Source of the DNA: Leptolyngbya ohadii IS1
GTDB lineage: Bacteria > Cyanobacteriota > Cyanobacteriia > Elainellales > Elainellaceae
Direction of reading: 5' to 3'
NCBI RefSeq assembly: GCF_002215035.1
Contig: NZ_NKFP01000006.1
Span: forward strand, 3,811,080 to 3,875,079
DNA length: 64,000 nt
Under the pieces are notes generated by a model. It was not told the DNA's origin and did no database searches. It saw only the letters and a list, made by a program, of their open reading frames with translations. Positions within the stretch are counted from its first letter, which is position 1, and each line of letters starts with the position of its first letter. This document shows, in pieces, positions 6,148-18,806 of the stretch. The position numbers and the translations under genes were made by a program.

Positions 6148-6654
6148 TCAGCCTGAGGCGGCGATCGGAACCAGCATTCGCCGGAGATTCAGCAGAAAAA
6201 CCGTAGCTGGGGCTTGTTCCAGCGCAAGAGTAGCCGCATGGCTGGCAACCCTGAGGACACCGGACGAACTGCCCGTTTGCGGCAGGATCTGGATCAGGTC
6301 TAGCGGGAACTCGACCAGATTCGGTGGCTCACCCACAGGGATGGCACAAAGCTCGCCGGGTAAACCGTGCGTAATCACTAAAAAAGGGCGATGGGTAGGT
6401 GCGGGGACAGCATTTTCTGGTTCTAACTGCTGATGCAGATCAAAAAGCGGAATTACATGGCGTCCGATTTGAATTAAACCAGCTTTGTCCAGTTCACCTG
6501 TTGTTACGGGACGATTTATCACTTGCAGCACTTCGCTGACTGGCAGCATGAAAGAATAGTTGGCAGCAGAGAAAATGATAAATTTTCCGATCTCTAACTC
6601 ACGGATTGGCTCACTCTGCATTAGTTTGATTTCATCCTTTTTCCGTCGCATCAT
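6148..6654 (-). CDS. CheW-like chemotaxis coupling protein (extra copy)
   Basis: A 168-residue CheW-domain protein, last gene of the minus-strand phototaxis operon. The CheW fold is suggested by the N-terminal strand pattern (KFIIFSAANYSFMLPVSEVLQVI), the central IPLFDL motif and hydrophobic strands in the second half. CheW proteins couple MCP receptors to CheA. It starts 53 bases after the end of the CheA gene, so it is probably co-transcribed, but it is not part of the canonical pixGHIJL set and may serve as an alternative adaptor. An alternative ATG at 6621 would remove 11 lysine-rich residues. The specific role is unknown. Confidence 0.8.
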   Translation of the reverse strand: MMRRKKDEIKLMQSEPIRELEIGKFIIFSAANYSFMLPVSEVLQVINRPVTTGELDKAGLIQIGRHVIPLFDLHQQLEPENAVPAPTHRPFLVITHGLPGELCAIPVGEPPNLVEFPLDLIQILPQTGSSSGVLRVASHAATLALEQAPATVFLLNLRRMLVPIAASG

Positions 6655-6707: not shown

Positions 6708-9698
6708 TCAGGCAACGTGGGCAAGTAGCGTAGTAACCATTTTTATGAGCTTATGTTCCATAAATGGCTTGACCATATACACTGTTGCCCCAAGCTGCGA
6801 AGCCAGCATTCGATGCTTGTCATCACTGCGGGAAGACAGGATGAGAACAGGAACACTGGCAAGAGCGGGAATTTGCTGACGATGCCTGAGAAATTCAAAC
6901 CCGTTCATTCTGGGCATTTCAACATCGCAAATCACCAGTCGAATATTGGGCTGCTGCTGAAAACAATCCAGCCCTTCGCGCCCATCCTGCGCCTGAAGAA
7001 CCTGATATCCTGCCTTTTCGAGGGTCAGAACCAGCGATTGACGAGTGGTGATTGAATCTTCGACCACCAGGATTCCGGTATTGGGGCTTGCTCTCAATTC
7101 CGATGTCGCTACAGCAGGGGCAAAAGGCAGCAGGCGCTCGGTCAAACCCTGTTCTGGCAGGGCATGGGTCCATCCGCTTAAAAGGCTGCTTTCCTGAGCA
7201 TCCATCACAATTCTCTCCAGCAGGGTGGCGGCATCAATGACGAGTGCCAGTCGCCCATCTGCCAGCGTCGCTGCACCCTGAACATATTTTGGCGGGTGAA
7301 TCATCGATCCCAATGGACGAATCACGAGTTTTTGTTCACTGGTTAAGCGATCGACTTCCAGACCCAGCAGTTCTCCCTGGCGGCGAATCAAAATGACTGG
7401 CTTGGCAGATTCATGGGAAATAAAATTCTTAGACGCCAGAGAAGAGGGCGATGAAAATGCAGGCGTTGGCGCTTCGTAGTCTAATGCCTCAACGATCGAG
7501 TAGATCGGAATTAACGCTTCCGTTTGGTTGTGGAACCAGCGCAGGAATTTGCCGCCATTCCGCTCCTGGATCTGGCTGGAGGACGGAATCAAGATTTGCT
7601 CGATCGGATCGTCTAGGAGGGCATAGGTTTTACCGTCGGCTTCACAGACAAAGAGTTGGGCAATCGTCAGATTCAGCGGAATCTGTAGCATGAAAGTCGT
7701 TCCCCGATGCGGCTCCGATTGAACAGTGGCTTTGCCCTGTAGCGCCGTGAGCTGGTTTTTGACCACGTCCAGACCAACCCCCCGCCCAGAGAGATCGCTT
7801 ACCTGGGTAGCCGTCGAGAAACCTGGCTCAAATAGGATTTCCGTGAGCTGTTCCGGACTCAAATGGTTGACCTGCTCGATCGATAGGAATTGTCTTTCCA
7901 CAGCACGCTGCCGAATTTGGTCAAAGTTCAATCCGCTGCCGTCGTCCTGCACTTCAATCACCAGATTCCTGCCGTGGTAATACGCAGAAAAGGTAATTAA
8001 ACCCCTCTCCGGTTTACCTTGCTGGCGGCGCAGGGTAGGCGGTTCGATACCGTGAGCAAACGCATTACGCAGCAGGTGCAGCAGCGGATCAAAGAGTTTT
8101 TCTGCCACTGCCTTATCGACCAGAACTTCACCCCCCTCTAGCTTGAGCGCAACGGGTTTGTTGTGAAGGGTTTCGAGCTGTTGCAGCATACGGGGAAAGC
8201 GATCGAAAATTTCGCTCAGGGGCAGCATTCTGGCTTCGATCAGCGCGTCTTGCGTATTGGTTAGCAGTTGGTGCTGCTTTTCTAGCAGTTGGCTGGTCTG
8301 TTCGGTCAGCAAATAAATTGCCTCTGCCGTCTCCGAGAACTGCACGGTCTGGTCGAGAAGCGATCGAATCAGGTCGGCGCTGTTTAAGTAACCGGATCGA
8401 TCGAAGCGGTTCCTGCGTCTTTTGCGCGATCGCGATGCCGATTTACTGGACAACGAGGGGGGCACCGATGGGGGATTCTTCGCCTGCGTTCGCTGCTGAT
8501 GGTTTGCTTCACGATGGGTGTGATCTTGAAGCTGCGTGAAAAGCTGCTGATGGCGCTTGACCTGACTCAGCAAGGTTTTGCTCACCCTCTGCAATTGTTC
8601 GGTCTGAAGCGACTGGCGATTCTGATGGGTGACTAACTCTCCAACCGCATGGTTGAATCGATCGAGATGCTTGACTGCAACCCGAACCGTCGGCAGCGCT
8701 GAACTGGAATCTTTGTGGGCGGGTTCTTTCAATGGACTAGTCGTTGGCTCCGACAGTAGGGGATCGGGAGTAAGGCTGGCGCTTTGCAAAGCGATCGTGC
8801 CTGCCTGGGACAGTGATTCTCCCGTCGAGGCAGGCTCGGTTGCCGACCCCCAAATGCTCTCCAGAAGACCGCTGGAAGGTTCTTCCAGTAAGTTTTCAGC
8901 ACCATCAAGGGCTGGCGGCATTGCAAGCTGCTGTAGCGTGCTGGAGGGCTCGCCCCCCTGAGTTCGATCGCCTGCCAGAACGGCTGCCTGTCCCGCCTGG
9001 AAATCTGCCAGTGCCGCCTGTGCAATCCGGATTGCCTGCTCTGGATAGTAGGTGAGGGCAGCGATCGTCGCTCTGGCAATTGCCGCGAATCCAGAGAGGT
9101 TTAGTGACTCAGCCAATCCCAACAGCACTTCCGCATGGGTTTGCAGTTCAGCTTTCACCGCTTCGGGTTCAGTTTCGTTGAGCATTGCCGCAATCTGCTC
9201 TAGCCGCTGCGCGACGCCCAGTTCAAACATCGATTGGGCGAGGTCAAACCCCAGATCGGCTGAAGTGGGCAGGTAAGGTTCCTGATCAAAACAGTCTCCG
9301 AGCTTATCCTGGAGCAGGGCAAACACAAAAGCTGTTTGATTCAGCACTTCTGTATCGTTGATCGTGCTGCCGTTGAGTTCTGCCATTAGCGGCAGACGCA
9401 GGCACTCCAGCCCCTCAAACAAAAGCGCTTCAACCTCTGGATCAAGCGAGAGATTGGGTTTACACAGTGCCTTGAAAATATCCTCCAGGGAGTGAGCAAT
9501 CTGGGCGATCGTCTCTAGACCCACGCTGGTTGAAGCGCCCTTCAGGGTATGGGTGGCTCGCATCAAATTATTGACCTGATTGATGCCCCAGTTTTTGCGG
9601 AGGTTAAATAATCCCTCCTCGATCGCTCGCAGCAGTTCAGGGGCTTCCTGGCGGAAATATTGATAGGTTTGCTGACGAATGGTGGGATCTAAGCTCAT
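6708..9698 (-). CDS. pixL: CheA-type hybrid histidine kinase (PixL-like)
   Basis: Cytoplasmic histidine kinase of the phototaxis pathway, about 996 residues. Domains in order: N-terminal HPt with phosphoacceptor His50 in the motif ATHTLKGAS; a long acidic/serine-rich linker; dimerisation region starting near residue 330; HATPase with N-box LLHLLRNAFAHGIE and G-boxes (DDGSGL, GRGVGLDVV); a CheW-like regulatory domain; and a C-terminal receiver whose phosphorylatable Asp lies in VICDVEMPRMNG. This fused receiver is typical of cyanobacterial CheA/PixL proteins. The ATG at 9698 is chosen because HPt homology begins there and it falls 25 bases after the stop of the receptor gene. Gene order with the upstream genes matches pixGHIJL, which controls type IV pilus-based phototaxis. 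Confidence 0.9.
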   Translation of the reverse strand: MSLDPTIRQQTYQYFRQEAPELLRAIEEGLFNLRKNWGINQVNNLMRATHTLKGASTSVGLETIAQIAHSLEDIFKALCKPNLSLDPEVEALLFEGLECLRLPLMAELNGSTINDTEVLNQTAFVFALLQDKLGDCFDQEPYLPTSADLGFDLAQSMFELGVAQRLEQIAAMLNETEPEAVKAELQTHAEVLLGLAESLNLSGFAAIARATIAALTYYPEQAIRIAQAALADFQAGQAAVLAGDRTQGGEPSSTLQQLAMPPALDGAENLLEEPSSGLLESIWGSATEPASTGESLSQAGTIALQSASLTPDPLLSEPTTSPLKEPAHKDSSSALPTVRVAVKHLDRFNHAVGELVTHQNRQSLQTEQLQRVSKTLLSQVKRHQQLFTQLQDHTHREANHQQRTQAKNPPSVPPSLSSKSASRSRKRRRNRFDRSGYLNSADLIRSLLDQTVQFSETAEAIYLLTEQTSQLLEKQHQLLTNTQDALIEARMLPLSEIFDRFPRMLQQLETLHNKPVALKLEGGEVLVDKAVAEKLFDPLLHLLRNAFAHGIEPPTLRRQQGKPERGLITFSAYYHGRNLVIEVQDDGSGLNFDQIRQRAVERQFLSIEQVNHLSPEQLTEILFEPGFSTATQVSDLSGRGVGLDVVKNQLTALQGKATVQSEPHRGTTFMLQIPLNLTIAQLFVCEADGKTYALLDDPIEQILIPSSSQIQERNGGKFLRWFHNQTEALIPIYSIVEALDYEAPTPAFSSPSSLASKNFISHESAKPVILIRRQGELLGLEVDRLTSEQKLVIRPLGSMIHPPKYVQGAATLADGRLALVIDAATLLERIVMDAQESSLLSGWTHALPEQGLTERLLPFAPAVATSELRASPNTGILVVEDSITTRQSLVLTLEKAGYQVLQAQDGREGLDCFQQQPNIRLVICDVEMPRMNGFEFLRHRQQIPALASVPVLILSSRSDDKHRMLASQLGATVYMVKPFMEHKLIKMVTTLLAHVA

Positions 9699-9723: not shown

Positions 9724-12696
9724 TTATTCGGCCTTGAACTGTTCGCTCTTAGACTGGAGATCCTGCGCCATTGCCAGAAGATCCTGGAACGACGCTGAAA
9801 TGGTGCCTGCATCCTGGGAGGTGCGGTTGGCGATCGCGGCGACATCCTGCATGGTTTGGGTCACAGACTGGGACTGCTGTGCCTGTGCCTGCGTTGCCTG
9901 GGTAATGCCTGCCACCAACTGACTGATCTGAGCCGTTGCATTGACGATCGCATTGAGATATTCGCGAGCCTCAATCACAACCGTGGTTCCCGATGAAACT
10001 TGCTCGATTCCCGTTTCCATTGCTGTTGCCACTTCTGCCGTACTTGCCTGAATTTCCTGAACCAGCTGTTCAATTTCGGTGGCGGCACTGGCAGACTGAC
10101 GCGCCAGCGATCGGACTTCATCGGCAACAACCGCAAAACCCCGCCCGAAATCCCCCGCACGGGTTGCTTCGATCGTGGCGTTGAGTGCCAGGAGCTGCGT
10201 CTGAGTTGTAAATTGACCAATCAGACTGACGACCCTGGAAATCTTCTGCGACGATTCGCTTAGCCGTCGAAGGCGAATGCTGGTTTCAATGACGGTGGCG
10301 CGGATGTCCTCCATTTCGTCTACGGTGCGATCGATCGCGGCATCTCCCGCCATGACAATCTGGTTTGCCTGCTGCACAGCGGCTTCCACCTGTTGTGCAT
10401 CTGCCTCAACGTTCTGCGTGGAAACTGCCATCGCCTGAACCTGCGCGAAGACTTGTTCGAGTGCCTGAAGCTGGTGCTGTGCCTGAAGGGCAAGCTGATT
10501 GATTGCGGTATTGTTTGCCTGTGAGGTTTGCGCAACCTGATTTGCAGCGGTTTGCATCTGCGTCACGGTTTGCCGCAAGCTATTCAGCGTGTTGTTGTAG
10601 GCATCGGCGATTGTGCCCACTTCCGAATCAGTAACCGGAGCGCGAACGGTTAAATCCCCTGCCAGTGCCGGACGTACCGCTGTCAAAAGCTGCATTACCT
10701 CCTGCTGAAGCTGCTCTTTTGCCACTTTTTCGCGATCGGCGGCTTCTGACACCTGCCGGGACTGCTGCTGAAGCTGCTCAATAAACTCGCCCTGCTGAAT
10801 TGCCACGTTTAACTGAGCGGCAATCTGTTTGGCAAACTCAATGTCTCCCTCTTTCCAGACACGCGGTTCTGTGCAGTGGTGGATACAGAACAAGCCCCAT
10901 AGGTCCTCGCCCCGGAGCAGCGGCACGACCAGGTTTGCTCGCACCTGAAAGTGCGACAGCGTTTCGAGATAGCACTCTTGCAGTCCCGACTCGTAAATAT
11001 CGGATGTCGCAAAGACGCGCCCCTGTCGGTACTGTTCGGCAAATCCCTCACTGAAGCAGTGATCGATGACTTTGACAGACATTGCAGAGACCAGTCCAGC
11101 CTTGACATCCTCTGCAATGGTTTCTCCTTCGGCGTATCCGGGAAAAAGCTTGAAAATTGCCACGCGATCGACCTGCAAAAAGCTCCGCACTTCCCTTGCC
11201 GTTGTCTTCAGCATGGTCTGCAAGTCCAGAGATTGCCGGATGCGATCGACCGTTTTAGAAATGACTCGCTCCCGCTCTGCGGTCTTGGTAAGCTGCTTGG
11301 ACTGGTCGCGGAGCTGCTCCAGATACTCTGCCTGGTGAATTGCCAGCCCAAACTGCCGACCCACCTGAACTAGCAGGTTGACATCGCTTGCAGTCCAGTG
11401 GCGCGCTCCTGAGTTCTGGTAGGCAGCTAGCAAGCCCCACAGCTTCTCTCCATCAAAAATGGGGGCAATTGCCTGCGCTTTAGCTTCAAACCCTTCCAAA
11501 ATTTCAATATGGCAGGGAGCCAGTCCGGCTTCATAGATGTCATCGACAGTAAAGGTTTCATGGTGGCGATAGCGTCCGCCCTGGGTTTCCTGCAAGTGCG
11601 TATCGTTCCAGGCGGTTTCCAGATCTCGCCCCACCAGTCCTACCCAGTTTCTGCCGACAGACTCCGACACGAAGCGTCCGCCCCAATCGGCATCGAAGCG
11701 ATAAACGGCAACGCGATCGCACTTTAACTGGTGCCGCACTTCTTGTGTGGTGGTATTGAACAGGCTGTCAACGTCCGAAGCCTGGTGAATTTTGTGAATC
11801 ACCTGGGCAACGATTTTGTCCTGTTCTGCCTGCTCTTGTTTCTGGGCGCGGGCCTCCGCAGGCTGAAAATTTAAGCGCAGTTCCTGAACGATTTGCTGGA
11901 GCAGATTGATTTCCGGCAATTCCCACTGGCGTAAACGAGCGCACTGCTGCACTGCCAGCAATCCCCAGATCTGCTGATCGATCACGATCGGTAAACTGAG
12001 GCTGGTTTTGATCTGAAAGCGGTCAAGCAACTGGGACTGATAGGGCGTCACCTGTTCTGAAGCCGCATTGACTGTTACAAAAGGCTGGTTTTGATAGTTT
12101 GCCAGCGTCTCGTCACCGAACAGGACAACGGACAGGGTTTCATTCAGACTGGGCGTAAAGCCGTTGATCATCGACTCTGCAACAACAATTCCCTGGCGCT
12201 CCCCCTGAGCCTGATAAACCAGCACACGATCGGCGCTAAAGTGCTGACGAATTTCTGCAACCGCGATCGTCAAGAGGGCATCTCGGGTTTCTGCCTGCTG
12301 CATCCGGCTCGCGACCTGAAACAGCCATTCTAAACGCTGATCCAGTTTGCTGGCGGCAGAAGCACTGCTGCTATAGCTCCGGGGCACAGCACCGTAAGGA
12401 AAGGACTGACCTTGGGAATTCTCGATTTTCTGCATGAAATTAGCGGGTTCTTGAGTAACACCGTCGAGTTGTGCCATACCGTTGATTTGTGCAACACCGT
12501 CGGTTTGTGCATGAGGTGCAGGCTGATAGAAAGCAGGAGCCGGAGCAGCGCTAGTCCTGTCGGCTGCATCGATCGCGCTAGCAGATGAAGGAGGGGTAAC
12601 AGCAAGAGCGGCATGGGGAGAGAGAGAAGATGAGGACGCATCCCACTGCTCATCGGGTGTCCCGGCATCTGGCACATCGCTCAAAAGGCGGTTCAT
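9724..12696 (-). CDS. pixJ: Methyl-accepting photoreceptor with three GAF domains (PixJ-like)
   Basis: Receptor of the phototaxis operon, about 990 residues, with no obvious transmembrane segment. Counting from the ATG at 12696: a Ser/Ala/Gln-rich N-terminal region; GAF1 about 115-275; GAF2 about 295-455 with a Cys-His pair ([10 protein letters not shown], Cys codon 11512-11514); GAF3 about 480-635 with a DHCF motif (Cys codon 11056-11058) plus a second Cys-Tyr site ([10 protein letters not shown], Cys codon 10972-10974); HAMP-like region; and an MCP signalling domain whose hairpin tip is [20 protein letters not shown]. Bilin-binding cyanobacteriochrome GAFs use exactly such CH and DXCF cysteines, so GAF2 and GAF3 are both likely chromophore sites. 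Upstream in-frame starts at 12750/12759 would overlap pixI by about 50 bases and cannot be excluded. Confidence 0.88.
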
Positions 12697-12704
12697 CAAG
12701 CGTT

Positions 12705-13388
12705 TTATTGGGGAAGCATGGACGCTTCGCCCTTCGGGTGTTTTTTCCATATGGGACACTGCATTAAGGACTGAAGATCTAAAACGGCATCGCCAGACCC
12801 CGGAAGAATTCCTTGCACGAGGGGCAGGAGGTCTGGGGAAAATAAGCCGATCGGCGCAGGCTGAAGCTGCTGGAGGTCATGCAGTTCAATCTCTTGGACT
12901 TGAGTCACAATAAGACCGATCGCCTGCTGACTATTTGCTTGCTGACTATTTACCTGCTGACTATTTGCCTGCTGACTGCTCTCCCCGCGAGTCTCAGCCA
13001 CAATTACGTTGAACTGGCTCAAGCACTGCCCCTGCTGAACAGGAGAGGAATAGCTGACAAAGTGATTGAAATCAATCAGCCAGAGCATTTCTCCGCGCCA
13101 GTAGCAGATGCCAAGCACCGATCGCGGCATTTCGGGGATGGGGAGAACATCGCTAAACTCAACTTTCAGAACTTCGATAATTTGTTCGAGCGGCAGCAAA
13201 ACGCTGTCCTGGTTCCCCAAAACAAAACGCAGCAGTCGTTCTCTGGTTTCGGGGGGAATTACATCGAAGAGAAGCCCAGTCAAGCCGTTAAAATTATCGG
13301 CAGCATTGATTTGCGGACTGGCTGATTGCGAACTGGCTGATTGCGGACTGCCGATTTGCTTGTTAGTCGGTGTTTCACCAAACTGCAT
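12705..13388 (-). CDS. pixI: CheW-type adaptor with repeat-encoded Gln/Ser tracts (PixI-like)
   Basis: CheW-domain coupling protein, 227 residues, between the CheY-type and the MCP gene of the pix operon. The CheW fold spans about residues 48-215 ([35 protein letters not shown]). Two low-complexity stretches interrupt it: an N-terminal Ser/Pro/Gln/Ala tract (repeats of SPQSA type) and an internal tract of QQANS-type pentapeptides at about residues 140-157. Both are encoded by 15-base tandem repeats, so copy-number change would keep the frame. It is expected to link PixJ to PixL. The stop codon is 8 bases ahead of the preferred pixJ start. Confidence 0.87.
12922..12978. repeat. 15-bp tandem repeat inside pixI (internal)
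   Basis: Three good copies and one degenerate copy of a 15-base unit (consensus GCCTGCTGACTATTT) run in tandem. On the minus strand each unit encodes a five-residue block of the QQANS type. Confidence 0.85.
13313..13357. repeat. 15-bp tandem repeat inside pixI (N-terminal)
   Basis: Three units of consensus GCGGACTGGCTGATT, the last one diverged, encode the [13 protein letters not shown] blocks near the N-terminus of the CheW-like protein. It has the same length as the internal array but a different unit sequence. Confidence 0.82.
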
Positions 13389-13401: not shown

Positions 13402-13767
13402 TTAACTCGCCGTCAGGCGCAAAACGGTATCGGCTAACTCATCCTGCTGCACTGGTTTTGGTAGATAGGCATTTGCCCCCAGCATGCTGCCCCAGAGTTT
13501 ATCGACGTTGGTGCCCTTGGTTGAACAAAGCACGACGGGAATGCATGAGGTGCTGGTATGAATTTTCAATTCCCGACAAAGTTCAAAGCCGCTTTCTCCC
13601 GGTAGCATGACATCCAGCAGCACGAGATCGGGCTTTTGCGATCGCAGCAGAACTCGCGCTTCTTCACAGTTGGTCGCGCTGACAACAAAGATGCCCGCCT
13701 GAATCAGGTATTGGGTCAGCAGTTCTGTTTCTGTCAAACTGTCTTCAACTAAAAGAACTGTGGTCAT
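13402..13767 (-). CDS. pixH: CheY-type response regulator (PixH-like)
   Basis: Single receiver-domain protein of 121 residues. Conserved features are the acidic pair in LLVEDSLTETE, the phosphoacceptor Asp in VLLDVMLPGESGFE, the conserved Thr/Ser region (VVLCSTKGTN) and the Lys in YLPKPVQQDEL. It has no output domain, so it signals by protein contact, as PixH/PilH proteins do in pilus-based phototaxis. It lies 37 bases downstream of the PatA-type regulator gene and 13 bases before the CheW gene, inside one minus-strand operon. Confidence 0.9.
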   Translation of the reverse strand: MTTVLLVEDSLTETELLTQYLIQAGIFVVSATNCEEARVLLRSQKPDLVLLDVMLPGESGFELCRELKIHTSTSCIPVVLCSTKGTNVDKLWGSMLGANAYLPKPVQQDELADTVLRLTAS

Positions 13768-13804: not shown

Positions 13805-15010
13805 CTATTGAGATGTAAATCCAGGAAGAGTCTGCCGCAGGGTATTCAGCACTTTATCTGGCTCGATCGGCTTAGATAGAAAGCCCGAAGCCCCCGCAAG
13901 CTTGGCTCGCACACGGTCAACAATGCCGTTGCTCCCCGTCAAAATCACGATCGGAACATCCTTGAAGGCAGTGATTCGCCGGATCTGGGTGCAGACTTCA
14001 TATCCGTTGGCGATCGGCATCAATAAATCTAAAAAAATCAGATCGGGCTTTTGCTCCAGCAGGATGGGAATGGCTTGAAGCGGATCAGGAATGCTGATCA
14101 ACCGATGACCCGCCCGGTCAAGAATCTGGTTCATTGCTGTGCTATCAAATCCGCTGTCCTCGACGTAAGCAATCACAAACTGGCGCGAGGATTGCTGATT
14201 CACTCGAATATCTCCAACCGGATTTAGCCCCATGATGCCTTGCTTGATATAGGGCATGAGCGATTGCGTTAGCGGCACGATAGGCTGCTTGAGACGGATA
14301 GCAAGATCCCTCAAAGTCCAGTATCCGTTTGCGAATGCTGTGAGGTTGTGATAAGTAAGTAGCGAAGTTTGCTGTCGAAGTCCTTCGGAGTCCCAGATCA
14401 AAGGTGCCAGATTTGGGGAGATTCTTTCCAGACCGCTCTGCTGCCAAACTGACCAGGCTTGTGCTGCCTGCTGCCAGATCCGTGCTGCCTCGAAAGAAAC
14501 CAGCCAGGAGGAATCAGTCGAGGAAGCCGCAAGGGGCTGAGAAGTTAGGTGCATTTTTACAGGCTGCGGGGAGAGGTGCAAGGTTTGAATGAGATCAAAC
14601 ACAACCTCCAGCAAATTACCCGCAACGATCGACGACAAATGGCTCTGCTGAATTTGTCCCTGCTGCACCAGATGAACCAGCGATTGATAGTTCCAGCAGC
14701 GAACGCAATTAACATCTTGGGAAGATGAACGCTGGAAAGATGAGCCGCCTGCGAGCTGAGGACAATATTGCACCAGTTGTCGATGCCATCGGCGTAGCGG
14801 ATGCAGTTCGCCAGCACATCCTACCAGGCGACCCTGAAAAAAAAAGAAACTCCAGGTTGGCTCTGCGTCAGGAGAGGGGCTTAAGTCCAGCCGCCTAGAG
14901 ATTCGTCTGCGGCTACAGACTTGAAAATGATTAATGAGGTCATTGATACGATGAATTGGATAAACAATCGTTGAAGAACAACTAAACTCCAGTGAAGAAG
15001 GTTGCGGCAT
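13805..15010 (-). CDS. pixG: PatA-type response regulator (PixG-like)
   Basis: Response regulator of 401 residues with a PATAN (DUF4388-type) N-terminal region followed by a C-terminal receiver. The receiver begins near residue 270 (FVIAYVEDSGFDS) and its phosphoacceptor Asp is in LIFLDLLMPIANGYE; the terminal Lys motif is FLSKPIEPDKV. PixG/PatA proteins act upstream of the pilus motors in phototaxis or in heterocyst patterning. Its position as first gene of the cheY-cheW-mcp-cheA operon favours a PixG role. The promoter should lie in the long spacer above 15010. The N-terminal 270 residues are less conserved, so the exact start is moderately certain. Confidence 0.86.
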   Translation of the reverse strand: MPQPSSLEFSCSSTIVYPIHRINDLINHFQVCSRRRISRRLDLSPSPDAEPTWSFFFFQGRLVGCAGELHPLRRWHRQLVQYCPQLAGGSSFQRSSSQDVNCVRCWNYQSLVHLVQQGQIQQSHLSSIVAGNLLEVVFDLIQTLHLSPQPVKMHLTSQPLAASSTDSSWLVSFEAARIWQQAAQAWSVWQQSGLERISPNLAPLIWDSEGLRQQTSLLTYHNLTAFANGYWTLRDLAIRLKQPIVPLTQSLMPYIKQGIMGLNPVGDIRVNQQSSRQFVIAYVEDSGFDSTAMNQILDRAGHRLISIPDPLQAIPILLEQKPDLIFLDLLMPIANGYEVCTQIRRITAFKDVPIVILTGSNGIVDRVRAKLAGASGFLSKPIEPDKVLNTLRQTLPGFTSQ

Positions 15011-17734: not shown

Positions 17735-18220
17735 TTAGCTCAAGCCAGAGCTGATGTAGTCGAAGTAAACGCCCATTTCCTTACCAGCGTCAGCACCAAC
17801 CAGGCTAGCGGTGACTTCCTTCATTGCCTGGATTGCCTGCACGGTAGCAGCGATCGGTACACCCAGCGAGTTGTAGGTTTCCTTCAGACCATTCAGCACA
17901 CGCTCATCCAGGATGGAAGGATCTCCAGCCAGCATTGCGTAGGTGGAATAGCGGAGGTAGTAGTCGAGGTCGCGGATGCAAGCAGCATAGCGACGGGTGG
18001 TGTACATGTTGCCGCCGGGACGGGTGATGTCCGAGTACAGCAGGGACTTAGCAACTGCTTCCTTCACGATTGCAGCAGCATTAGCGCTGATGGTGGTTGC
18101 TGCACGAACGCGCAGTTCACCGCTGGAGAAGTAGCTCTTCAGCTTCTCGATTGCGGAGGTATCCAGGTACTTGCCCTGAACGTCAGCCGAGTTGATTACA
18201 GAAGTAATAGCGTCTTGCAT
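17735..18220 (-). CDS. apcB: Allophycocyanin beta subunit ApcB
   Basis: Phycobilisome core chromoprotein of 161 residues carrying one phycocyanobilin at Cys81 ([16 protein letters not shown]). The Asn at residue 71 (PGGNMY) corresponds to the gamma-N-methylated asparagine of beta subunits. It pairs with ApcA to form the allophycocyanin trimers that funnel energy to the photosystems. The gene follows apcA by 100 bases, with an AAGGAAG ribosome-binding site about 10 bases before the ATG. Identity is very secure. Confidence 0.98.
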
Positions 18221-18320
18221 GATCTCGCTTCCTTAAAACGTAATCTTGTGGATCAAGATAGAAAATTGAAAGAGGGATGAGTTTTCCAGACTGAAGCAAT
18301 ATTGCTCAGATTGGAAACTC

Positions 18321-18806
18321 TTATTGCATTGCGCCGATAACGTAGTCGAAGTAGGAGCCAGCTTCAGCGGCATCTTCACCCGACATCATCGACGTAGCAG
18401 CATTCTTCATTGCGCGAACGCCTTCAGCAACTGCATCGATCGGAGTACCCAGAGACTTGTACATCTCACGAACACCCACGATACCGATTTCTTCGATCGG
18501 GGTCACATCACCGGAAACGACTCCGTAGGTGATGAGGCGCAGGTAGTAGTCGAGGTCACGCAGGCAGGTAGCGGTCATTTCTTCGCCGTAAGCGTTGCCA
18601 CCGGGGGAAACAACGTCAGGACGCTTTTGGAAGAGCTGATCGCCAGCTTGCTTCACAATGCGCTCACGGGAGTCGGTCAGCACCTGAGCGATCCGCAGAC
18701 GACGCTCACCAGAGGTGACGAAGCCTTTGATTTGATCCAGTTCACCAGGGCTGAGATAGCGAGCCTCAGCATCAGCATTCACGATTGACTTCGTGACAAT
18801 ACTCAT
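18321..18806 (-). CDS. apcA: Allophycocyanin alpha subunit ApcA
   Basis: Phycobilisome core chromoprotein, 161 residues, with the phycocyanobilin attachment Cys81 in [16 protein letters not shown]. It forms alpha-beta monomers with ApcB. The gene begins with a strong GGAGG ribosome-binding site 9 bases before the ATG and is the first gene of apcABC. The promoter should lie in the roughly 480-base spacer above 18806. Residue pattern and length match canonical ApcA rather than the minor variants ApcD or ApcF. Confidence 0.98.

What the first reader, a model, noticed from the sequence alone, without database searches (positions are those of the whole stretch)
10972..11514. PixJ-like receptor carries two different cyanobacteriochrome cysteine sets
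GAF2 has a Cys-His pair in [10 protein letters not shown] (Cys codon 11512-11514) without a DXCF motif, the pattern of canonical red/green-type cyanobacteriochromes. GAF3 has a DHCF motif (Cys codon 11056-11058) plus a second Cys-Tyr site (codon 10972-10974), the DXCF blue/green type. One receptor with both chemistries could compare two colours of light. Family knowledge: CH and DXCF motifs are established in cyanobacteriochromes; bilin binding here is inferred.
Basis: partly seen in the sequence, partly recalled or inferred. Interest (0 to 1): 0.6.

Follow-up and report, generated by a model that had tools for sequence, protein, structure and literature searches.

The report
Two-colour light receptor for cyanobacterial phototaxis

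Summary
All three cysteine codons lie where stated in a 1011-aa PixJ-like receptor (GAF1-GAF2-GAF3-HAMP-MCP) inside a pixGHIJL-type operon. GAF2 belongs to the extended red/green (XRG) lineage: WXDXXL motif, Cys-His, no second Cys, and all 14 pocket positions compared equal AnPixJg2. It sits in a 100/100-supported clade with AnPixJg2, NpR6012g4 and Slr1393g3. GAF3 is a dual-Cys DXCF domain, but not of the TePixJ clade (AU p = 2e-5). It belongs to a separate 'DHCF' clade in which 31 of 33 members keep both cysteines. It also has Tyr instead of His after the canonical Cys and a third Cys (C625) where AnPixJg2 has Ala350 beside ring D, so its exact colours are less certain than 'blue/green'. The XRG + DXCF mix recurs: 23 of 91 MCP receptors examined have both, and Nostoc punctiforme PtxD (six colours) is a published precedent for a multi-chemistry PixJ-type receptor. 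Likely working: red drives GAF2, blue drives GAF3, green resets both, and a long helix carries the sum to HAMP/MCP and PixL. Well supported by sequence, untested by experiment, modest novelty.

The parts
9724..12759 (-). PixJ-like receptor ORF, 1011 aa: GAF1-GAF2-GAF3-HAMP(half)-MCP; the start is uncertain (GTG 12759, ATG 12750 or ATG 12696)
   Evidence: Pfam GAF 7.4e-58 (3 stretches), MCPsignal 4e-39; no evident transmembrane helix (highest 19-residue Kyte-Doolittle mean 1.22)
11866..12342 (-). GAF1 (aa 140-298), no bilin-binding Cys
   Evidence: groups with Cys-less GAFs of relatives, 44-row clade
11308..11808 (-). GAF2 (aa 318-484), extended red/green (XRG) cyanobacteriochrome domain
11593..11610 (-). 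WNDTHL = WXDXXL motif of XRG domains (W384, D386)
   Evidence: sequence; motif definition from PMC11284453
11512..11514 (-). canonical Cys416 of GAF2, followed by His417
11233..11391 (-). predicted continuous 53-residue helix joining GAF2 and GAF3 (aa 457-509)
   Evidence: AlphaFold2 model ma76af261b123, helix 150-202; pTM 0.56, so the relative placement of the domains is uncertain
10768..11274 (-). GAF3 (aa 496-664), dual-Cys DXCF cyanobacteriochrome domain of the 'DHCF' clade
11053..11064 (-). DHCF motif; second Cys568 at 11056-11058
10972..10974 (-). canonical Cys596 of GAF3, followed by Tyr597 (CY, where TePixJ has CH)
10885..10887 (-). third pocket-side Cys625 of GAF3, aligned with AnPixJg2 Ala350 (ring D side)
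   Evidence: Cys in 28 of 33 clade rows; Ala350 placement from PMC11284453
10570..10662 (-). C-terminal half of a HAMP domain (aa 700-730), below Pfam's cut-off
   Evidence: E 0.0013, 19.4 bits against a cut-off of 25
9832..10371 (-). MCP signalling domain (aa 797-976)
6708..9698 (-). PixL-type CheA with receiver domain; likely start ATG 9698, just after the pixJ stop
   Evidence: Hpt, HATPase_c, CheW, Response_reg
6148..6654 (-). additional CheW-like protein
   Evidence: CheW 2.4e-05
12705..13388 (-). PixI-type CheW
   Evidence: CheW 3.6e-14
13402..13767 (-). PixH-type single-domain response regulator
13805..15010 (-). PixG-type response regulator with a long N-terminal domain (weak DUF4388, 0.0045, below cut-off)

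Best explanation
A soluble PixJ-type phototaxis receptor with two photochemically different cyanobacteriochrome units in series. GAF2 (red/green) would hold phycocyanobilin on C416, absorb red in the dark state and green after photoconversion. GAF3 would hold a bilin on C596, with C568 adding to bilin C10 in the dark state to give a blue-absorbing form; blue light breaks that bond and gives a longer-wave, probably green, form. Red therefore switches GAF2, blue switches GAF3, and green would reset both. GAF3, next to HAMP/MCP, is the core input; GAF2 acts through the connecting helix as a second-colour modulator. The MCP sets PixL (CheA) phosphorylation of PixG/PixH and so steers type IV pili. 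Shown here: sequence, lineage of each GAF, conserved cysteines, operon, bilin synthesis genes. Inferred from family knowledge: bilin attachment, colours, reset logic, motility output.
For: Cys codons exact. GAF2: 3W2Z AnPixJg2 E 1.1e-72, all 14 compared pocket positions identical to AnPixJg2, both trapped-twist Phe positions present (one of them is among the 14), XRG clade 100/100 in a tree built without the motif columns, model matches 3W2Z at Z 26.9, 1.9 A over 176 residues. GAF3: its best PDB hits are cyanobacteriochromes (6OAP 9.2e-45; TePixJ 3vv4 2e-30), DHCF clade 99/95, 31 of 33 clade rows keep both Cys, model matches TePixJ 4glq at Z 22.2, 2.1 A over 149. As the last GAF before the MCP, this domain type is found in 31 receptors of my set, 17 of 31 with an intact XRG GAF upstream. 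The pix gene order is found around relatives in nine named-record loci of the ten tested (L011-L014, L016-L019, L021; L014 and L018 end before or within pixL; L024 gave a PixJ match alone) and in a second operon of the same genome. The genome has 3 heme oxygenase matches and 1 bilin reductase match.
Against: No bilin binding, spectrum or phototaxis was tested. GAF3 departs from TePixJ: CY not CH, Cys625 where TePixJ-type domains mostly have Ile or Val, and a separate clade. The domain arrangement in the model is uncertain (pTM 0.56). SynPixJ1 has two transmembrane segments (PMC5812497); none is evident here. 14 of 31 receptors with the same last GAF show no intact XRG GAF in the same frame (L021 has a broken frame, L088 is cut by the contig end, and L096 has an XRG GAF too short for the scan), so the pairing is not obligatory. 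Most of the sample came by similarity to this receptor.
Confidence: 0.75

Rival explanations
1. GAF3 is a real dual-Cys bilin sensor but not blue/green: Tyr597 stacking on the bilin and Cys625 beside ring D give another pair (for example blue/red or blue/orange with retained PCB, a fluorescent weakly converting state, or biliverdin use).
For: CY in 16 and Cys at the C625 column in 28 of 33 clade rows; only 2 of 72 TePixJ-type (I.DPCF) domains have Cys there; His-to-Tyr at this site raised biliverdin use or fluorescence in engineered domains (PMC9378818; PMC6336887, passages); in Tlr0924, a DXCF domain, the part that keeps PCB ends in a red-absorbing state (PMC4067208, passages).
Against: The engineered cases are red/green or NpR3784-derived domains, not DXCF; clade rows with CH also have Cys at the C625 column (8 of 8), and Cys occurs there in 20 of 80 single-Cys domains, so it may only be one of several small residues; CY is also found in 8 of 72 TePixJ-type domains.
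Confidence: 0.3
2. Only GAF3 governs output; GAF2 binds a bilin but is a signalling bystander or only tunes gain.
For: The DHCF-type GAF is kept next to the MCP in 31 receptors while an intact XRG GAF is seen in 17 of 31; in several relatives a Cys-less GAF lies between the two.
Against: GAF2 keeps all 14 compared pocket positions and is directly adjacent to GAF3 here, in L061 and in L011, which argues for use.
Confidence: 0.25
3. GAF3 (or both) is a degenerate, non-bilin GAF.
For: Cys-less GAFs are common in the same receptors (GAF1 here).
Against: Asp, the Tyr302-equivalent, Leu, both Cys and the His shared with TePixJ are all kept in GAF3; clade-wide retention of both Cys.
Confidence: 0.04

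Closest known systems
PtxD (NpF2164) of Nostoc punctiforme
   Same: Multi-GAF cyanobacteriochrome fused to an MCP in a che-type cluster; single- and dual-Cys bilin GAFs in one receptor; six colours; needed for hormogonium phototaxis (PMC5812497, passages)
   Different: Seven GAFs; two of its dual-Cys GAFs, g2 and g3, are of the insert-Cys type (PMC5240096, passages), not DXCF; no sequence of PtxD was compared here
AnPixJ GAF2 (PDB 3W2Z), red/green
   Same: GAF2 of the window: motif, pocket, fold, clade
   Different: about 61-64% identity
TePixJ GAF (PDB 4GLQ, 3VV4), blue/green DXCF
   Same: DXCF second Cys, canonical Cys, fold; listed as a methyl-accepting chemotaxis protein
   Different: separate DXCF clade; CH not CY; Ile at the position of C625; about 35-38% identity
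Synechocystis PixJ1 (tax1)
   Same: MCP receptor in a pixGHIJL-type cluster; blue/green second GAF (PMC5812497, passages)
   Different: two GAFs, one bilin, two transmembrane segments; the window receptor has three GAFs, two likely bilins, no evident membrane segment; its sequence was not compared here
PPHK dual sensor histidine kinase (PDB 6OAP)
   Same: Best PDB sequence hit of GAF3 and a two-domain sensor in series (the name PPHK is recalled)
   Different: lacks the DXCF Cys (DQYF) and is a histidine kinase

Membership tests
XRG (red/green) cyanobacteriochrome, GAF2 | WXDXXL motif | tested here: met
   WNDTHL at aa 384-389
XRG (red/green) cyanobacteriochrome, GAF2 | canonical Cys, Cys-His, no DXCF second Cys | tested here: met
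   C416-H417; His at the second-Cys column
XRG (red/green) cyanobacteriochrome, GAF2 | falls in the XRG clade | tested here: met
   22 XRG rows one clade, 100/100, motif columns left out
XRG (red/green) cyanobacteriochrome, GAF2 | red/green photoconversion with PCB | not testable with these tools
   needs expression and spectra
DXCF cyanobacteriochrome, GAF3 | D-x-C-F second Cys plus canonical Cys | tested here: met
   C568 and C596
DXCF cyanobacteriochrome, GAF3 | groups with other DXCF domains and not with Cys-less GAFs | tested here: met
   33-row clade with 31 DXCF, one single-Cys and one Cys-less row, 97; 99/95
TePixJ-type (DPCF) DXCF clade, GAF3 | placement with TePixJ | tested here: not met
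   AU p 1.9e-5 against it
TePixJ-type (DPCF) DXCF clade, GAF3 | His after the canonical Cys | tested here: not met
   Tyr597; TePixJ-type (I.DPCF) domains have His in 64 of 72 and Tyr in 8, so the feature is usual, not strict
DXCF cyanobacteriochrome, GAF3 | PCB-to-PVB isomerisation and blue/green photocycle | not testable with these tools
   inferred from the family only
PixJ phototaxis receptor | CBCR GAFs fused to MCP, in a pixGHIJL-type gene order | tested here: met
PixJ phototaxis receptor | membrane anchoring as in SynPixJ1 | tested here: not met
   highest 19-residue hydropathy 1.22; not a dedicated predictor, and anchoring is not known to be required in all PixJ proteins
PixJ phototaxis receptor | control of phototaxis | not testable with these tools
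   needs a mutant

The most novel reading that the evidence does not exclude
GAF3 represents a dual-Cys lineage ('DHCF' clade), uncharacterised as far as I could find, whose pocket brings three cysteines (C568, C596, C625) and a Tyr next to the anchoring Cys around one bilin, giving a photocycle that differs from TePixJ-type blue/green sensors. Paired with a red/green GAF it would make a three-colour (blue, green, red) receptor in which green is the common reset. The clade may also be the nearest DXCF kin of the red/green lineage, so that the tandem preserves both sides of that evolutionary step.
Probability: 0.15. Interest if true: 0.55.

Novelty: new member of a known kind. Interest (0 to 1): 0.3.

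Why it matters
If the colours are as inferred, one short receptor (three GAFs) reads red/green and blue/green ratios with a shared green reset. That is a compact system for asking how tandem photoswitches add up in one chemotaxis-type output, simpler than seven-GAF PtxD. The DHCF/CY/C625 clade gives a defined set of domains for measuring how the residue after the anchoring Cys and a ring-D-side Cys tune DXCF photocycles.

Tried and rejected
Rejected: GAF3 as a TePixJ-clade domain (AU p 1.9e-5). Rejected: GAF3 as a degenerate GAF. Not resolved: whether the DHCF clade is sister to the XRG lineage. It is 83/86 in the best tree, and holding DHCF with the TePixJ-type domains is not rejected (p 0.323). 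No root from outside the cyanobacteriochromes was used.

Considered and weakened: C625 as a unique third ligand. Cys is also found at that column in 20 of 80 single-Cys and 4 of 59 XRG domains, so it may be just a small residue. Counting every last-GAF domain as having both cysteines (30 of 30) is circular, because that set was chosen by the motif; the tree clade (31 of 33) is the fair count. The pLDDT of the model is good but pTM is 0.56, so no statement is made on the angle between the domains.

Own slip: I left out three loci as duplicates (L068, L076, L096). L068 and L076 are the same contigs as L021 and L011; L096 repeats L037, which was not in the survey, so it should have stayed in. One search recounts with L096 put back. 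The trees do not contain it.

Literature: four papers likely to define DXCF lineages or review the field were not held. A search for 'third Cys', 'third cysteine' or 'triple-Cys' with cyanobacteriochrome or DXCF listed 20 of 320 papers; none of the cyanobacteriochrome papers among those 20 had any of those phrases. A search for DHCF, 'CY motif' or 'Cys-Tyr motif' with cyanobacteriochrome found one paper, PMC9378818, on a red/green domain. That covers only the held open-licence library, so absence from print is not claimed.

Full report
Observation. The minus-strand ORF 9724-12759 (1011 aa) holds the three motifs exactly where reported: C416 (11512-11514) in [11 protein letters not shown]568 (11056-11058) in DHCF, C596 (10972-10974) in ECYLE. 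Pfam finds three GAF stretches and an MCP signalling domain, and a sub-threshold HAMP half at aa 700-730. No membrane segment is evident. The start codon is uncertain (GTG 12759, ATG 12750 or ATG 12696).

Surroundings. The gene lies in a minus-strand cluster: PixG-type regulator 13805-15010, PixH-type regulator 13402-13767, CheW 12705-13388, PixJ, CheA/PixL (ORF from 9845; likely ATG at 9698), and a further CheW 6148-6654. The same gene order was found by tblastn in nine of ten loci tested from named records (L011-L014, L016-L019, L021; L014 ends before pixL, L018 ends within it) and in a second cluster of the same genome (L141); L024 gave a PixJ match alone. The extra CheW was found in L011, L012, L013, L021 and L141 only. 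The genome has one ferredoxin-dependent bilin reductase match and three heme oxygenase matches, and two phycobilisome proteins lie at 17735-18806, so bilin should be available.

GAF2. Best PDB match AnPixJg2 3W2Z, E 1.1e-72; then NpR6012g4 6BHN, 1.8e-71 (the domain names are recalled, the call gives the entries and molecule names). It has the WXDXXL motif that defines XRG domains, and no second Cys. The definition is from PMC11284453, of which I read parts 1-3 of 6. All 14 pocket positions compared equal AnPixJg2, including W289, D291, T292, C321, H322, L326 and A350; the beta2 and alpha4 Phe positions linked to the trapped-twist photoproduct (PMC5240096, passages) are both Phe. The choice of some of the 14 positions rests on my recall of the AnPixJg2 pocket.

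GAF3. Best PDB matches are 6OAP (9.2e-45), miRFP670nano (1.2e-33) and NpR6012g4 (4.8e-33), with TePixJ 3vv4 at 2e-30, all cyanobacteriochromes or derived from them. It has D566, C568, F569, a Tyr at the Y302 column, C596, L601, and His at the Y352 column, as TePixJ does. It differs from TePixJ in three places: Tyr597 for His523, Phe for Leu on helix 4, and C625 for Ile; TePixJ-type domains have Ile or Val there in 70 of 72, Cys in the other 2. PMC11284453 places the matching residue of AnPixJg2, Ala350, at the beta face of ring D. The beta2 residue is not Phe, so the two-Phe arrangement named for red/green and Teal-DXCF photocycles (PMC5240096) is not met; this favours green over teal, by inference. 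In the clade as a whole the beta2 residue varies and is Phe in some rows.

Survey. One similarity search over 388 cyanobacterial genomes gave matches at E <= 1e-110 in 129. I fetched 80 stretches chosen by hand from its listed matches, best first and mostly those reaching the MCP end, and added the 16 loci. A profile scan and classification by aligned columns gave 93 MCP proteins with such GAFs; with the two true duplicates (L068, L076) dropped there are 91: 23 with both XRG and DXCF domains, 11 XRG only, 47 DXCF only, 10 neither. The 91 include the window and a short second ORF of L140. In two of the 23 (L129, L130) the DXCF domains sit on the XRG side of the tree, probably a Cys regained. 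31 of the 91 end in a DXCF GAF of the window's type; 17 of 31 also carry an intact XRG GAF. Of the other 14, L021 is broken by a frame change, L088 is cut by its contig end, and L096 (the same contig stretch as L037) has an XRG GAF that was too incomplete for the scan but shows. The residue after the canonical Cys in the 31 is Tyr in 19, Leu in 11 and His in 1. The nearest relative, L061 (79% identical over residues 157-1010), has the same none-XRG-DXCF order. In many other relatives a Cys-less GAF lies between the XRG and the DXCF domain.

Trees. With the motif columns removed, a 270-domain quick tree puts GAF2 on the XRG/single-Cys side (99) and GAF3 in a 33-row clade (97), of which 31 rows have both cysteines; the two others are one single-Cys and one Cys-less domain. 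A careful tree of 67 rows (the references, the window and random draws from each class) gives XRG 100/100 and the DHCF clade 99/95. Window GAF3 with the TePixJ-type domains is rejected (p 1.9e-5); DHCF plus TePixJ-type as one group is not (p 0.323). The C625 column is Cys in 28 of 33 clade rows.

Structure. An AlphaFold2 model of the tandem (31-row alignment, pLDDT 86.9, pTM 0.56) shows two GAF folds joined by a 53-residue helix. GAF2 aligns to 3W2Z at Z 26.9, 1.9 A over 176 residues, tied with the far-red domain JSC1_58120g3 (6xhh, Z 27.0, 1.0 A over 164). GAF3 aligns to 6oaq at Z 25.4, 1.8 A over 174, and to TePixJ 4glq at Z 22.2, 2.1 A over 149. Fold alone therefore does not tell the colour classes apart. 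The model has no bilin.

Mechanism. From the families: red/green domains are red-absorbing in the dark and green-absorbing after light; DXCF domains are blue-absorbing in the dark, with the second Cys on C10, and typically green-absorbing after light (PMC11284453). Put in one protein, this gives red as the driver of GAF2, blue as the driver of GAF3 and green as a common reset. The DXCF GAF is the constant element next to HAMP/MCP in this group of receptors, the XRG GAF the variable one (the group was chosen by its last GAF), so I take GAF3 as core input and GAF2 as modulator. Output through the MCP to PixL and PixG/PixH follows the tax1 model reviewed in PMC5812497 (passages). All steps after sequence assignment are inference.

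Known context. PtxD (seven GAFs, at least six binding bilin, two with a second Cys link, six colours) already shows that one phototaxis MCP can mix single- and dual-Cys chemistries (PMC5812497, passages). PMC13383048 describes PixJ as having one to five GAFs in series (passages). CY is described as rare in red/green domains, NpF2164g5 being the exception (PMC9378818, passages); in the DXCF domains of my set it is frequent. I found no held paper on the DHCF/CY/C625 combination, but the library lacks the DXCF lineage paper and reviews that I looked for. Verdict: correct observation, good inference, ordinary kind, with one mildly unusual domain.

Noticed in passing
L141:4961-14432 (same genome, contig C1, about 833-842 kb): A second complete pixGHIJL-plus-CheW cluster in the same genome. 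Its PixJ also ends in a DHCF/CY GAF and MCP but has no intact red/green GAF (none, single-Cys D.DRIL/CY, none, DXCF; L064).
   Followed up: partly
window:10885-10887: Third pocket-side cysteine (C625) in GAF3; the column is Cys in 28 of 33 rows of its clade but in 2 of 72 TePixJ-type domains.
   Followed up: partly
L066, L069, L070, L072-L074, L078, L079, L081, L082, L085, L086: In these relatives a Cys-less GAF sits between the red/green and the last DXCF GAF (13 such domains form one clade); the window receptor and L061 lack this spacer.
   Followed up: no
L017, second GAF: A red/green-lineage GAF with WXDXXL whose canonical Cys is replaced by Asn (NY): a likely loss of bilin attachment.
   Followed up: no
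L129 and L130, GAF2/GAF3: DTCL/CH domains that fall on the red/green side of the tree: probably a second Cys regained within the red/green lineage.
   Followed up: no
L021:5665-9635: PixJ relative split into two open frames, by a frame change or an assembly error.
   Followed up: no
window:809-6129: ABC transporter proteins with an NMT1-like domain followed by a molybdopterin oxidoreductase (probably nitrate uptake and reduction), converging on the pix cluster.
   Followed up: partly
window:17735-18806: Two adjacent phycobilisome proteins (allophycocyanin-like by eye) on the minus strand.
   Followed up: partly
window:9698-9845: The CheA ORF as listed overlaps the end of pixJ; an in-frame ATG at 9698 just after the pixJ stop is the likelier start.
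   Followed up: yes
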